This document shows, one piece after another, positions 1 to 54,107 of a DNA stretch of 64,000 nt. Numbering within the stretch: position 1 is the first letter of the stretch; each line of letters begins with the position of its first letter. The DNA is from Elusimicrobiota bacterium (GTDB lineage: Bacteria > Elusimicrobiota > Elusimicrobia > FEN-1173), in NCBI GenBank assembly GCA_016788905.1, contig JAEURZ010000010.1:1-64000 (forward strand), in the 5' to 3' direction. The notes beneath the pieces were generated by a model. It made no database searches and had not been told where the DNA came from. It worked only from the letters and a program-made list of their open reading frames with translations. The position numbers and the translations under genes are program-made.

Positions 1-360
1 TCGCGGGGACTACGGACAAACTTTTTTGGGAAGGAAAAAGGTCCGGATTTTTCGTCGAATCCCGCGATCCAACTGAAAATTACAGGCTAGTCTGCATCTG
101 GGTATTGAGGAAGGGGGAGGCTCGCGACAGCCGTGACAATAAATCGAGCGCCGTCTGATTTCCTCTTATTGGGCAACGACTAAGAAGAAGTTCAGACGTT
201 TCTCCCTCTCCCGCTCGCGGGAGAGGGTCGGGGAGAGGGTGGTGTTTTCCAATAAGGAAACGATCGATAATTTTATTGGTTTAAATTCGAACCCGTTCGG
301 TGGCCATTTCAGACCAAAATGACCAGTCGCCCACTCGAGGACAAGAAATAAGGAATCCCG
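1..360. other. Gene-free left end
   Basis: No open reading frame here resembles a real gene. The stretch follows the end of ppc, which is read leftwards. It holds one palindromic repeat, listed separately at 204-244. I see no convincing terminator, RNA gene or promoter. Confidence 0.6.
204..244. repeat. Dispersed palindromic repeat, copy 1
   Basis: A perfect 11-base inverted repeat (CCCTCTCCCGC, two-base spacer, GCGGGAGAGGG) at 204-227 is followed by a G-rich tail (GGGGAGAGGG type) to about 244. The same core with a similar tail occurs at 41335-41371 and 54043-54079, and related forms occur at 33067-33122, 33475-33531 and 33741-33787. This is a REP-like family. Confidence 0.85.
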
Positions 361-32611: not shown

Positions 32612-33037
32612 TCAGATTCCGTTCACCGGAGTGGGGTCCATGGCCTTCAGAAGAATTTCTTTAACCGATGGGGGCACCCGGACCGGTTTCCAGGATTTGT
32701 TCACGAAGGGATGTTTCGTATACCCCATGGCCATGGGTTTCCCGGAATCGACGTTGACCAGCTCATAGGAAAACGTCAGGGAGGCACGGCCCAGCTCCGT
32801 GATGCGGGAACGAATTTTAATCAGGTCGTCGTAATGGGCCGGAGCCAAATAGTTCACCTTCGTCTCCATGACCGGAAGATAAATCTCTTTCTCTTCCAGA
32901 TCACGATACCGAATCCCCAGTTCACGCATAAACTCTGTCCGACCCCGCTCAAAGAGAACCAGGTAATTGGCGTAATAAACAACGCCCATCCGATCCGTGT
33001 CCGCGTAAGAAACCCGAAAATCCATCTCATGGATCAT
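32612..33037 (-). CDS. YbgC-like acyl-CoA thioesterase
   Basis: A 141-residue hotdog-fold protein of the 4-hydroxybenzoyl-CoA thioesterase/YbgC family. The motif YADTDRMGVVYYANYLVLFERGR (key residues Asp-13 region, Gly, Tyr, Glu) is diagnostic. YbgC is usually encoded at the start of tol-pal operons; here it precedes radC, far from the ExbB/TonB-like genes. The start at 33037 has GAGGAAAG eight bases upstream. Confidence 0.92.
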   Translation of the reverse strand: MIHEMDFRVSYADTDRMGVVYYANYLVLFERGRTEFMRELGIRYRDLEEKEIYLPVMETKVNYLAPAHYDDLIKIRSRITELGRASLTFSYELVNVDSGKPMAMGYTKHPFVNKSWKPVRVPPSVKEILLKAMDPTPVNGI

Positions 33038-33061
33038 AACGATCTTTCCTCAATGATTGTC

Positions 33062-33472
33062 TTAATCCCTCTCCCCCCGCGAAGCGGGTGGGAGAGGTGG
33101 CACAAAGTGCCGGTGAGGGGGGCTTAATGCCTCCTCCACTTTATTTAAAATAATCTCCGCGTGATCATAAACATCCATATTCCAAAACCGAAGAACCCGA
33201 AACCCGCGAGCTTCGAGATCGGATGTTCTTTGACTGTCCGACTCTGTTCGCTCAGCGTGTTGCCCACCATCGAGTTCAACAATCAGCCTTTTCTCCACAC
33301 AACAAAAATCTGCTATAAACGGCCCAAGAATCAGCTGACGACGAAATTTATAGCCGCTCAGTCGCCGAGATCGGAGAAGGGACCAAAGGCGTTTTTCTGC
33401 GTCGGTTTGTTCGCGCCGTAAACGACGCGCCTGAATTCTTAGCCATGGACGATCGGGTGAAGCACGGCCCAT
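33062..33472 (-). CDS. DUF559 (Vsr-like) endonuclease-domain protein inside inverted repeats
   Basis: A 136-residue DUF559 protein of the restriction-endonuclease-like/Vsr fold. Conserved features are RREQTDAEKRLWSLLR, GYKFRRQLILGPFIADFCC, IVELDGGQHAE (likely catalytic Asp/Gln-x-His region) and GFRVLRFWNMDVY. The core ends near residue 113. The last 22 or so residues (SPPHRHFVPPLPPASRGERD) are encoded by the left palindromic repeat, and the start codon abuts the right repeat. The gene lies 24 bases before the thioesterase gene. I infer a mobile or repeat-mobilising nuclease, not a housekeeping gene. Confidence 0.85.
   Translation of the reverse strand: MGRASPDRPWLRIQARRLRREQTDAEKRLWSLLRSRRLSGYKFRRQLILGPFIADFCCVEKRLIVELDGGQHAERTESDSQRTSDLEARGFRVLRFWNMDVYDHAEIILNKVEEALSPPHRHFVPPLPPASRGERD
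33067..33122 (-). repeat. Inverted palindromic repeat, left of DUF559
   Basis: A 56-base palindrome-rich repeat with internal stems (CCCCCGC/GCGGGTG and GGCAC/GTGCC). It matches the repeat at 33475-33531 in inverted orientation, differing mainly in the loop (AAAGT against CCGTTG). It carries the C-terminal codons and stop of the DUF559 gene. Confidence 0.85.
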
Positions 33473-33474
33473 CC

Positions 33475-33531
33475 CCCCCCCTCACCGGCCCGTTGGGCCA
33501 CCTCTCCCACCCGCTTCGCGGGGGGAGAGGG
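33475..33531 (+). repeat. Inverted palindromic repeat, right of DUF559
   Basis: A 57-base repeat, the inverted partner of 33067-33122. Outer ends read CCCTCTCC...; inner ends read CCCCCTCACCGGC. The DUF559 start codon lies directly left of it. Confidence 0.85.
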
Positions 33532-33577
33532 AGTAATAGAATTCGCTAACCCATCTTTCAAAATCCCATCCGCCGGA

Positions 33578-33692
33578 TTCGGACCGTCGCAGTGCTCCGG
33601 TCACCTGGGGCGGCAGAGCCGCTGTTTCGGACCGTCTAAGTGCTCCGGTCACCTGGGGCGGCAGAGCCGCTGTTTCGGACCGTCTAAGTGCT
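33578..33692. repeat. 48-base tandem repeat, 2.4 copies
   Basis: Units start at 33578, 33626 and 33674 (last one 19 bases). Units 1 and 2 differ only at GC/TA near base 12 (CCGTCGCAG against CCGTCTAAG). There are no spacers, so this is not a CRISPR array. It lies between the DUF559 element and the palindrome at 33741, in a gene-free stretch. Confidence 0.9.
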
Positions 33693-33740: not shown

Positions 33741-33787
33741 TCCTTCTCCCCGCTGTGGGAGAAGGTCCCCGAAGGGGGGATGAGGGG
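33741..33787. repeat. Dispersed palindromic repeat, variant copy
   Basis: CCTTCTCCCC, GCTGT spacer, GGGAGAAGG forms a near-perfect palindrome, followed by TCCCCGAAGGGGGGA and GAGGGG. It is a diverged relative of the CCCTCTCCCGC family, placed just after the pfp stop. Confidence 0.7.
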
Positions 33788-33801: not shown

Positions 33802-35463
33802 CTAAGATTCCAGCTGAAGAGTCTTGGTCGTGAGGTCCGTGACCGACGCTGGACCAAAATATTGAATGGGTCCCGGGTAAACGTAACCGTCTTCCGCCAC
33901 CAGGGAATCCCGAAGTTTGGCGTGGGCGCGGAACGGCGCACCGTCAAGTTTCACCAACGCCTTCTGGATCACAGGCTTCTCTTTTCCCTTTCGGCGTTCC
34001 ACGTTCATCATCATCGTGAGCGGAACCCCGCCCGGAGCCCATTGGGCGGAAGGTTTGGTGAGATTTTTAATGGACGACACGTAACCCGTCAAACCGTTTA
34101 AGGCCAACACCGCGGCGTTATACCCGAGCGCGTAACAATAGGTGGCGTCAAAGTTCGACGGGGCCCCACAGCGCCCCTCGTAGCCAAAGAAATGCGTGAT
34201 GGCGGAGAATTTCCCCACGAACGATCCCTCTTTTTTTAACAGGGACAAACGTTTCTTCACCATCTCCACCAACAATTTCTCGGTTTCAATTTGGGACACC
34301 TGAACGTTCCCGTGAGGATCCCGATCCAACATCAGTTGGGCTTGAATCCCCGCGGGAAGCGAATTCAGAAGGTCCGCCAAGGGCGCCGGCAAGGCGGCCG
34401 CCACGATCGCCCGCTTTTCGTCAAAATTCGCAACCGAGGACAAGCGGGACTCGTTTGCGGCGAGGACGTCATTCAAGGAGGAAATGAGTTCTTTCATTTC
34501 CGGAATAAATTCGATGAGCCCCTCGGGAATCAAAAGAACCCCATAGTTCTTTTTCGCCTTGGCACGAAGAGTCACAGCCTGAACCACGGTGTCCACCACT
34601 TGAGCCAACGTCATTTTCTTGGCCAATACCTCTTCGCCAATCAAGGCCACGTTGGGCCGCGTTTTCAAAGCGACCTCAAGAGTGATATGGGACGCGCTCC
34701 GCCCCATCAGACGAATGAAATGCCAATATTTTTGGGCCGAGAGCACGTCCCGTGAAATATTCCCCACCACTTCCGCGTAGATTTTAGTGGCGGTGTCGAA
34801 CCCGAAAGACGCTTCGATGTCATCGTTCTTCAAGTCCCCGTCAATGGTTTTCGGAACCCCCACCACGCTCAGGGAAAGCCCCTCCGCTTTGAAATATTCC
34901 GCTAAGAGAGCGGCGTTGGTGTTGGAATCGTCTCCCCCCACCACCACCAAGGCATCCAATCGGTTGGTCTCCAGCGTTTTCTTTGCGGCGGTAAATTGTT
35001 CCGGGGATTCAATTTTCGTTCGCCCGGATTGAATCATATCGAACCCGCCGGTGTTCCGGTACTGGTCCACAATGCCCGCGGTGATTTCGATCCATTTATT
35101 CTCCAGAATTCCTGAAGGGCCTCCCTGGAAACCGATCAATTTGTTTTTCGGGTTCGCCCGCTTTAATCCGTCAAAAAGGCCCGCCAAGACATTGTGCCCC
35201 CCCGGCGCTTGCCCTCCGGAAAGAACCACTCCCAACCGAAGTGCTTTTTTACCAATTGAAGCGTTGCGTCCCTTCGTCAACTTCGCCAAAGGGAGCCCGT
35301 AGGTCTGGGGAAAAATAGCTTTCAACGCGGCCTGATCCGACAGACTTTGTGTCGGACGCCCCAACCGCGGAACAACACCGGTGGGTCCAGATCGCAACAC
35401 CATCGGGAGGGTGGGTTTAAATTTGGATCGTTCAATTTGAAGTTCGGATTTTAGGGTTGGCAT
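33802..35463 (-). CDS. pfp: Pyrophosphate-dependent 6-phosphofructokinase (long form)
   Basis: A 553-residue phosphofructokinase of the long PPi-dependent group. Nucleotide/PPi-loop motifs are VVLSGGQAPGGHN and VVGGDDSNTNA, where Asp replaces the Gly of ATP enzymes, and substrate motifs are PKTIDGDLKN and HFFGYEGRCGAPS. The enzyme works reversibly between fructose-6-phosphate and the 1,6-bisphosphate. Start ATG at 35463 has GAGG nine bases upstream. It follows fbaB on the same strand, so two successive glycolytic steps are grouped. Confidence 0.95.
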   Translation of the reverse strand: MPTLKSELQIERSKFKPTLPMVLRSGPTGVVPRLGRPTQSLSDQAALKAIFPQTYGLPLAKLTKGRNASIGKKALRLGVVLSGGQAPGGHNVLAGLFDGLKRANPKNKLIGFQGGPSGILENKWIEITAGIVDQYRNTGGFDMIQSGRTKIESPEQFTAAKKTLETNRLDALVVVGGDDSNTNAALLAEYFKAEGLSLSVVGVPKTIDGDLKNDDIEASFGFDTATKIYAEVVGNISRDVLSAQKYWHFIRLMGRSASHITLEVALKTRPNVALIGEEVLAKKMTLAQVVDTVVQAVTLRAKAKKNYGVLLIPEGLIEFIPEMKELISSLNDVLAANESRLSSVANFDEKRAIVAAALPAPLADLLNSLPAGIQAQLMLDRDPHGNVQVSQIETEKLLVEMVKKRLSLLKKEGSFVGKFSAITHFFGYEGRCGAPSNFDATYCYALGYNAAVLALNGLTGYVSSIKNLTKPSAQWAPGGVPLTMMMNVERRKGKEKPVIQKALVKLDGAPFRAHAKLRDSLVAEDGYVYPGPIQYFGPASVTDLTTKTLQLES

Positions 35464-35504
35464 GGATTTAGACCTCAGTGGAGTGAGCGACACCACACAA
35501 ACCG

Positions 35505-52640: not shown

Positions 52641-54107
52641 TTAATTTGGCGTTACCGTGCCGGCACTGTCCAAGGTTGGAACAGGTTCCGGGGTCGGCAC
52701 CGGGGGTGTGATAGGGGCAAACTGGGGCGCGGGATCCGCGCCTTCCAGCCCGCCCGGAACCCGCATGCGCAACTCAACCTCCGGAACGATATTGGTCTTA
52801 TAGTCCAGCCGGAACTTGCCCCGCTCTTCCCACACCTTACCTGATTTGTATTCAATCGCAAATCGGTAACGGTAGAGGCCACGCTTCACCGGCCGACCGT
52901 TTTCGTCAGTCATGTCCCACAAAAGGGCCGATCCGGGATGATAGTGTTCCGACATACTTCGCACCACTTTCCCCTCCTCATCACTGACCATCAATGTCCA
53001 GTGGGCAATCTTCAACTTGGGCACATCCACCGCAAATCGGACTTCGTTTCGGAGCCCTTCTATATATATCGAATCCGAATTAGGCGCAAGGCCAACGGGC
53101 GTAATTTTCGCCCGATAAATGTTGCCCCAACGGAACGTGAGAGACACTTGGTTCGTCGCCCCCAACGCTTCCTGATTGACAAAAGCATAGTCAAAACGGA
53201 GGTTTCGCAGAGTGACGCCCATCCCCACGGTCACGTCCTTATTTTGGTCCCACCCGGTCCGAAGGCTCAAGAGGGGGACAGGATTGTATTCGAGACCGGA
53301 CACGAAATAGACGCTTTGTTGTTCCGTTTTGTTCGCGTCGAAGGAAAGGATAAAGAGGTCCCGCGGTGCCCGGTAAGCCAACCCCAGCCGCGTGTGAGCC
53401 CGGAATTCATCCGCGTCGTTTCCGACAGTGATCGACGGTTTGTTCAGGTTATTAAAGGTCGCCCCCGCGCTGATCCCGTTCCACGGGCGGGAATAGGCGG
53501 AGAGGTCTACCCCCATGGCGCTCCCTGAATCAGAAAGAATATTTTGCTGAAGGAATCGTAACCGCGCGCCTAAAGACCAGAGATCCATAAAGGAGCGTCC
53601 GTAGGAGAGGGAGACCGCGTTATGGGAAACATCCCCATTTCCTCCGGTCCTAAAATTAAGTTCGTCTCTCCTTTGAAATCCATCGGAACGGAGCGACAAA
53701 GCCGAAAGACCCAAGGTTCCCAACCGGGTTCCCATGGGCGCCCCAAAACCCATGTAATAGAGGTTCGACCCCATTCCGAACGGGGCGTACATGGTTTGAA
53801 ATTGATATTCGTCCAAATAGGCCAAGGCGGCCGGATTCCAATAATCGGCCGACACATCGTCCGCCACTGCCGTAAACGCCCCCCCCATCCCCAAGGACCG
53901 CGCCCCCGCCCCATACCGCAAATAATCCCCCGCCTCTCCAAAACTCGTGTCCGCCCCACCCGAAAGAGGAAGTGCCCAAATAACCAACCCCATAAGTATT
54001 GCACGCCCCCAAGGACCAAGGGATTTCTTAAATAAGGGATTTCCCTCTCCCGCCTGCGGGAGAGGGGGAGGGAGAGGGGATTTTTGAAATTGTCTTAGGC
54101 TTCTCAT
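52641..54107 (-). CDS. PorV/UPF0164-like outer-membrane protein with a FlgD-like tail
   Basis: A 488-residue protein. Residues 50-345 are an outer-membrane barrel of the PorV/UPF0164 type (GAGARSLGMGGAFTAVADD, SADYWNPAALA). PorV is a shuttle protein of type IX secretion in Bacteroidota. A FlgD-like Ig domain follows (about 375-445, LLWDMTDENGRPVKRGLYRY), then a Pro/Thr-rich tail. The ATG at 54107 overlaps the stop of the giant gene. Between the start and the hydrophobic signal core, about 17 residues (SPLPPPLPQAGEGNPLF) are encoded by an inserted palindromic repeat. Confidence 0.87.
   Translation of the reverse strand: MRSLRQFQKSPLPPPLPQAGEGNPLFKKSLGPWGRAILMGLVIWALPLSGGADTSFGEAGDYLRYGAGARSLGMGGAFTAVADDVSADYWNPAALAYLDEYQFQTMYAPFGMGSNLYYMGFGAPMGTRLGTLGLSALSLRSDGFQRRDELNFRTGGNGDVSHNAVSLSYGRSFMDLWSLGARLRFLQQNILSDSGSAMGVDLSAYSRPWNGISAGATFNNLNKPSITVGNDADEFRAHTRLGLAYRAPRDLFILSFDANKTEQQSVYFVSGLEYNPVPLLSLRTGWDQNKDVTVGMGVTLRNLRFDYAFVNQEALGATNQVSLTFRWGNIYRAKITPVGLAPNSDSIYIEGLRNEVRFAVDVPKLKIAHWTLMVSDEEGKVVRSMSEHYHPGSALLWDMTDENGRPVKRGLYRYRFAIEYKSGKVWEERGKFRLDYKTNIVPEVELRMRVPGGLEGADPAPQFAPITPPVPTPEPVPTLDSAGTVTPN
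54043..54079. repeat. Dispersed palindromic repeat, copy 3, inside a coding sequence
   Basis: CCCTCTCCCGC, CT, GCGGGAGAGGG, then GGAGGGAGAGGGG. It is inserted in frame between the start codon and the signal-peptide core of the PorV-like gene, and on the minus strand is read as a Pro/Leu-rich peptide. Confidence 0.9.

What the first reader, a model, noticed from the sequence alone, without database searches (positions are those of the whole stretch)
33062..33531. DUF559 nuclease gene bounded by inverted palindromes it partly encodes: a possible repeat-mobilising element
Seen: two 56-57-base palindrome-rich repeats in inverted orientation enclose only a DUF559 (Vsr-like endonuclease) gene; the start abuts one repeat and the last 20-odd codons and stop lie inside the other. 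Related palindromes lie elsewhere in the window. Known: RAYT-type transposases spread REP palindromes in other bacteria; DUF559 has the restriction-nuclease fold but no settled role. Inferred: DUF559 could be the nuclease of a REP-like family, with the solo palindromes as its non-autonomous forms.
Basis: partly seen in the sequence, partly recalled or inferred. Interest (0 to 1): 0.75.

Follow-up and report, generated by a model that had tools for sequence, protein, structure and literature searches.

The report
Nuclease gene bounded by BoxC repeats
A small DNA-cutting enzyme gene (DUF559) sits between two mirror-image copies of a repeat called BoxC, not only here but in most relatives across many bacterial phyla, which makes it the likely missing engine that spreads these widespread repeats of unknown origin.

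Summary
The DUF559 gene at 33062-33472 lies between 67-nt inverted repeats (91% alike). The repeats are BoxC / PIT / 'intrastrand triplex' motifs, known since the 1990s and in over 260 genomes; a 2015 study found no transposase or integrase near them. In 80 DUF559 loci from many phyla, 72 have inverted palindromes on both sides, against 5 of 426 control positions in the same loci. Among 60 relatives, BoxC is abundant (>=9 copies) in 11 of 15 genomes with stand-alone DUF559 and in 2 of 45 without. Arm variants track the protein sequence and, in one genome tested, the host's own repeats. Empty sites exist: pfp-ybgC, occupied here, has neither gene nor BoxC in two family members; purL-purQ, occupied in another family member (G004), is empty here. 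The predicted fold matches homing endonuclease I-Bth0305I and Vsr, with the catalytic residues present. Best reading: a mobile unit whose Vsr/homing-type nuclease is the dedicated BoxC enzyme, working like RAYT/REPIN but with unrelated chemistry. Cleavage of BoxC by DUF559 is inferred, not shown.

The parts
33062..33472 (-). DUF559 (PF04480) Vsr/homing-type PD-(D/E)XK nuclease gene, 136 aa; putative active site E26, D55, E66, D68, H72, D79
   Evidence: Pfam E 2.9e-40; conserved columns; AlphaFold2 model pLDDT 86; Foldseek 3hrl, 3r3p, Vsr
33476..33542 (-). upstream BoxC-type arm (tag GGTGAGGGG facing the gene), 4 nt from the start codon
   Evidence: inverted repeat I1; pattern; two hairpins
33056..33122 (+). 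downstream BoxC-type arm (tag facing the gene); encodes the last ~20 codons and stop of DUF559
33742..33786 (+). solo BoxC-type motif of the CCTTCTCCC..GGGAGAAGG..GGATGAGGG subtype between DUF559 and pfp
204..239 (+). solo BoxC-type motif (GC-N2-GC loop, GGGAGAGGG tag)
54043..54078 (+). solo BoxC-type motif (GC-N2-GC loop, GGGAGAGGG tag)
32612..33037 (-). YbgC-like thioesterase gene, one side of the insertion site; adjacent to pfp in relatives G001 and G003
33802..35496 (-). diphosphate-dependent phosphofructokinase (pfp) gene, other side of the insertion site

Best explanation
[BoxC arm]-DUF559-[inverted BoxC arm] is a minimal mobile unit, and DUF559 is the dedicated nuclease of the BoxC/PIT/triplex-motif repeats. 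Shown here: the association, the arm layout, the presence/absence of the whole unit at gene junctions, and the match of arm variant to the protein (and, in G018, to the host's own repeats). Inferred: the nuclease recognises the BoxC hairpin or triplex (single-stranded at the replication fork, or extruded) and nicks or cuts at or near the hairpin-tag boundary. Because it hydrolyses DNA rather than joining it, spread is completed by host repair: broken ends carrying BoxC sequence pair with the two inverted arms of the unit and gap repair copies it. Inward pairs and solo BoxC are gene-less products or targets of the same reaction, maintained in trans, as REPINs are by RAYTs.
For: 72/80 loci over many phyla have inverted palindromes vs 5/426 offset controls; both arms tag-inward 48/97, both outward 7/97, offset control 1/317. 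Arms match within a locus (median 27) better than between loci (11.5). BoxC count >=9 in 11/15 genomes with stand-alone DUF559 vs 2/45 without, p 2.7e-7, same direction inside families f1, f3, f4, f6. The variant arm of G018 occurs at 9 places in G018, 2 in same-family G009, 0 in ten others. Arm similarity follows protein similarity (Mantel r 0.26, p 0.0005; GC-partialled 0.25). Empty sites: pfp-ybgC in G001 and G003 without DUF559 or BoxC; purL-purQ occupied in G004, stop-to-start 2 nt in G000, also adjacent in G001, G003, G005. Four genera of one family carry it at four different gene junctions. E. coli BoxC pairs have the same inward layout without the gene and vary between strains. Fold: I-Bth0305I and Vsr.
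Against: No cleavage data. In the window's genome most solo BoxC belong to another subfamily than the arms. No nucleotide-level clean insertion of the DUF559 unit with target duplication was found; the empty sites are synteny-level (about 53-74% aa identity of the flanking genes). DUF559 is usually single-copy and stays put within a species (Azospirillum; E. coli ycjD). BoxC persists in E. coli lineages without ycjD. About 10% of DUF559 loci lack arms. The correlation across genomes is phylogenetically confounded despite the within-family contrasts.
Confidence: 0.62

Rival explanations
1. Homing parasite: BoxC repeats spread by other means, and DUF559 is a free-standing homing endonuclease whose target is an inward BoxC pair; it cuts pairs that lack it and is copied in by gap repair using the two arms. 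BoxC is then the landing site, not the cargo.
For: Closest catalytic fold with a known mobility role is homing endonuclease I-Bth0305I. Gene-less inward pairs of the expected layout exist. Arms face inward.
Against: The empty pfp-ybgC and purL-purQ sites carry no BoxC pair, so the arms seem to have come with the gene. BoxC is rare in genomes without DUF559, which pure parasitism does not predict.
Confidence: 0.18
2. Vsr-type mismatch repair: DUF559 is a housekeeping nickase for T:G mismatches, and the flanking BoxC motifs are incidental, for instance terminators or recombination scars.
For: Vsr-like fold; Caulobacter VsrA (DUF559) causes SOS when cytosine methylation is lost and is proposed to be a VSP repair enzyme (PMC12907096).
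Against: Does not explain 72/80 flanking inverted repeats across phyla, the match of arms to protein, or different insertion sites per genus. Maher's group found no terminator activity for PIT elements, as cited in PMC4666352. The Caulobacter authors call the activity unproven.
Confidence: 0.1
3. Passive cargo: the arms were brought by a RAYT or insertion sequence acting on BoxC, with DUF559 trapped between copies.
For: BoxC pairs also occur inside IS-like repeats in G010.
Against: The enclosed gene is DUF559 again and again across phyla; the only gene-sized inward pair found in BoxC-centred loci also encloses DUF559 (n=1).
Confidence: 0.06

Closest known systems
BoxC / PIT / intrastrand triplex motif (TM) repeats (Holder et al. 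2015, PMC4666352)
   Same: Arms and solo motifs have the defining layout: pyrimidine tract, purine tract, linker, second purine tract (CCCTCTCCC..GGGAGAGGG..GGGTGAGGG); inward pairs as in E. coli; many copies per genome.
   Different: No partner gene has been reported; that paper has no occurrence of DUF559, ycjD or nuclease and found no mobility gene near E. coli copies. Here a dedicated nuclease gene is enclosed. In the window's arms the linker is itself a hairpin, longer than in the E. coli motif.
RAYT (TnpA-REP) and REP/REPIN elements
   Same: Single-copy enzyme gene between inverted palindromes; palindrome variants match the enzyme; gene-less inward pairs elsewhere.
   Different: RAYT is a Y1 HUH transposase acting on GTAG-tagged REPs (own knowledge; PMC3733652); DUF559 is a PD-(D/E)XK hydrolase, the tag is GGGTGAGGG-like, and the palindrome is a polypurine/polypyrimidine triplex motif.
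EDxHD homing endonuclease I-Bth0305I (PDB 3r3p) and Vsr (1vsr, 1cw0)
   Same: Fold and, by published mapping, position of the catalytic acidic residues and histidine.
   Different: I-Bth0305I rides in an intron and Vsr in a methylation-linked repair pair; neither is known to be bounded by palindromic repeats.
E. coli YcjD (DUF559)
   Same: Family member; BoxC remnant at its 3' end and an intact BoxC about 190 nt further.
   Different: Only degenerate arms; no function assigned; alternates with eefRABCD between sapF and fabI (PMC12817139).

Membership tests
PF04480 DUF559 / PD-(D/E)XK Vsr-like nucleases | profile match over the curated cut-off | tested here: met
   136.9 bits vs cut-off 20.6
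PF04480 DUF559 / PD-(D/E)XK Vsr-like nucleases | catalytic residues (Vsr E25, D51, H69 equivalents) present | tested here: met
   E26, D55, E66, D68, H72, D79 conserved in 17 relatives; mapping to VsrA/Vsr as given in PMC12907096
PF04480 DUF559 / PD-(D/E)XK Vsr-like nucleases | nuclease activity | not testable with these tools
   no biochemical data on this protein
BoxC / PIT / TM repeats | Y-tract, R-tract, third R-tract, dispersed in many copies | tested here: met
   38 matches vs 3 reversed control in this genome, 27 vs 0 in E. coli H240
BoxC / PIT / TM repeats | short (1-6 nt) loop between the R-tract and the third strand | tested here: not met
   solo motifs meet it, but the two arms of the window have a 13-14 nt hairpin linker there; Holder et al. 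searched 1-6 nt loops
BoxC / PIT / TM repeats | triplex formed in vitro | not testable with these tools
   shown for the E. coli motif only (PMC4666352)
REP/RAYT system | HUH Y1 transposase | tested here: not met
   the only enclosed gene matches DUF559 and MTES_1575
REP/RAYT system | GTAG (or CGTC) tag at the foot of the palindrome | tested here: not met
   tag is GGTGAGGG/GGATGAGGG in the arms; consensus from PMC3733652
RAYT-like organisation (works like, not membership) | inverted palindromes around the enzyme gene, variant-matched solo copies in the same genome | tested here: met
   weaker in the window's own genome
Homing endonuclease element | occupied and unoccupied alleles of one site, target site present in the empty allele | tested here: inconclusive
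   empty alleles exist but carry no BoxC target
Classical insertion sequence | target-site duplication | tested here: inconclusive
   none visible by eye at the window locus; the E. coli BoxC-pair empty site differs by ~12 nt rather than showing a clean duplication

The most novel reading that the evidence does not exclude
A pan-bacterial class of mobile element in which a single-domain Vsr/homing-type hydrolase, with no strand-transfer chemistry, recognises triplex-forming palindromes and spreads both itself and short non-autonomous BoxC pairs by cut-and-repair copying; BoxC/PIT/triplex repeats in E. coli and many other bacteria are its footprint.
Probability: 0.4. Interest if true: 0.9.

Novelty: new variant of a known kind. 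Interest (0 to 1): 0.8.

Why it matters
BoxC/PIT/triplex repeats are found in hundreds of genomes, including the E. coli laboratory strains, and are linked to genome instability. How they spread has been open: the largest study reports no mobility gene near them. DUF559 is a large family with no settled role. Tying the two gives each a candidate explanation and makes the question directly testable in E. coli K-12 (ycjD and 23 mapped BoxC copies) with a gene deletion and a cleavage assay. If right, it adds a second, chemically unrelated solution to the RAYT/REPIN way of spreading palindromes.

Tried and rejected
RAYT membership: rejected, no HUH transposase. Defence system: PADLOC gives only a weak partial DpdF match (E 0.026). 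Known RNA element: no Rfam match. Phage cargo: only 3 weak matches in 50,697 phage records. Pair-unit boundaries from four near-identical copies in G010: the copies lie inside a larger IS-like repeat, so uninformative; two other G010 pairs (L263, L264) share only the motif, with unrelated flanks. Azospirillum strains: all occupied at the same site, no empty allele. E. coli sapF-fabI: the alternative allele carries eefRABCD, so it is not an empty site. E. coli gcvP-ygfF: strains without the BoxC pair differ over the whole junction (ygfF replaced by bglA next to gcvP), uninformative. P. aeruginosa gtrS-DUF559: no arms visible in the stretch read.

Full report
The observation. The window holds a 136-aa DUF559 gene (33062-33472, minus strand; PF04480, E 2.9e-40) between two inverted repeats at 33056-33122 and 33476-33542 (67 nt, 91%). 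The ATG is 4 nt from one arm; the last ~20 codons and the stop lie in the other. The palindrome pattern is not expected by chance. Each arm is CCTCTCCC-stem-loop-GGGAGAGG, then a second hairpin, then GGTGAGGGG; both arms fold better than shuffles, and hairpin 2 differs between the arms by a compensated pair (GGCAC/GTGCC against GGCCC/GGGCC). Three further motifs lie in the window and 38 matches in the genome against 3 for the reversed pattern. The genome has a single DUF559.

Is it general? In 60 relatives, DUF559 occurs in 24. Most of the strong loci show the same anatomy with locus-specific repeat variants. I then drew 80 DUF559 loci from a collection with one genome per species (Proteobacteria, Chloroflexota, Omnitrophota, Nitrospirota, Planctomycetota, Aminicenantes and others; these are the 80 best matches, so they lean towards relatives of the window's own protein group). 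With 300-nt flanks, 72/80 have an inverted repeat scoring at least 14 against 5 of 426 positions shifted within the same loci; at 20 or more, 58/80 against 2/426. Where the motif can be oriented, both tags face the gene in 48/97 loci and both face away in 7; the shifted control has 1/317. In 44 of 67 loci the reading frame ends in or beyond the downstream arm, so a C-terminus made of repeat is usual.

What the repeats are. In E. coli the same motif (CCCTCGCCCCTTTGGGGAGAGGGTTAGGGTGAGGG) occurs 27 times in strain H240, none for the reversed pattern. It is BoxC, re-described as PIT elements and as intrastrand triplex motifs (Holder et al. 2015, PMC4666352): more than 260 genomes, 23 copies in MG1655, five inverted pairs, variable among strains, and no transposase or integrase activity found near them. 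That paper does not mention DUF559 or ycjD. The held open-access library has no paper with DUF559 and inverted repeats, and the two with DUF559 and palindromic repeats are on other subjects. Subscription papers could not be searched.

Links between enzyme and repeat. (a) Copy number: at least 9 BoxC in 11 of 15 relatives with a stand-alone DUF559 and 2 of 45 without (p 2.7e-7), in the same direction inside four families; related genomes are not independent, so the p-value overstates. (b) Specificity: the odd arm of G018 (CCTCCCCAC..GTGGGGAGG) is at 9 places in G018, 2 in same-family G009 and none in ten others. (c) Arm similarity follows protein similarity over 57 loci (Mantel r 0.26, p 0.0005; nearly unchanged after GC); shared descent alone would also give some of this. 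(d) Arms within a locus resemble each other (median 27) far more than arms of different loci (11.5). Against this, in the window's own genome most solo motifs are of another subfamily than the arms.

Mobility. In family f1 the unit sits at four different junctions: pfp/ybgC (this window), gyrA/rtcB (G001), a LeuA-like gene/sdhC (G002) and purL/purQ (G004) (gene names from reading the translations). pfp and ybgC are adjacent without DUF559 or BoxC in G001 and in G003, where only about 29 nt separate them. purL and purQ are separated by about 620 nt with the unit in G004, by 2 nt in G000, and are close together in G001, G003 and G005. Insertion of the whole unit, arms included, is the simple reading. 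Gene-less E. coli pairs have the same inward layout with 18-29 nt between and come and go: the hrpB-mrcB pair is complete in H240, reduced to one hairpin in O111, absent in Nissle and A10. The Nissle allele differs by about 12 nt at the junction, so the event was not a clean insertion with target duplication.

The enzyme. The AlphaFold2 model (pLDDT 86) matches NGO0050 (3hrl), the catalytic domain of homing endonuclease I-Bth0305I (3r3p), and E. coli Vsr; the profile also finds 3r3p by sequence (E 7.6e-5). Residues E26, D55, E66, D68, H72 and D79 are conserved and correspond to the site proposed for Caulobacter VsrA and Vsr (the mapping onto the window's protein is mine). VsrA, a DUF559 protein, is needed for the SOS response seen when cytosine methylation is lost (PMC12907096), so members can damage DNA in cells. 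This family hydrolyses DNA and has no known strand-transfer step, hence the proposal that host repair completes the copying.

Judgement. Association and insertion polymorphism: shown. Nuclease acting on BoxC: likely, not shown. Mobilisation of solo BoxC in trans: plausible, about even. It works like RAYT/REPIN but is not a member: the HUH enzyme and the GTAG tag are absent. The homing-parasite reading is the main rival; the BoxC-free empty sites weigh against it.

Noticed in passing
window 33578-33692: Two and a half tandem copies of a 48-nt unit (TTCGGACCGTCNNAGTGCTCCGGTCACCTGGGGCGGCAGAGCCGCTGT) lie between the DUF559 unit and pfp.
   Followed up: no
L042 1325-1460 (G001, pfp-ybgC gap): The empty site in G001 holds its own different repeat (AGGGATGAATA-like units with an inverted counterpart), so this junction seems to collect repeats.
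   Followed up: no
L256-L259 and L260-L262 (G010): Inward BoxC pairs carried inside two larger IS-like dispersed repeats.
   Followed up: partly
E. coli sapF-fabI (L151, L155-L160): ycjD (DUF559) and the eefRABCD efflux operon are alternative contents of one junction; an inverted repeat CACCTCATTCTGACAA..TTGTCAGAATGAGGTG directly precedes ycjD.
   Followed up: partly
E. coli genomes: Strains such as LF82 show 1-3 matching places with the same query that gives 6-13 in many other strains; LF82-type lineages are expected to lack ycjD. Confounded by lineage, worth a proper test.
   Followed up: no
L161-L187 (E. coli H240): BoxC type A copies share a conserved outer flank (about GTGCNCGGACGGTC) and inner flank (GAACAGGCCGGCAC), so the unit is longer than the 37-nt triplex core.
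   Followed up: partly
L219 2000-2290 (P. aeruginosa plasmid): Chromosome-like gltR-gtrS segment with a DUF559 that looks frameshifted and has no visible arms.
   Followed up: no
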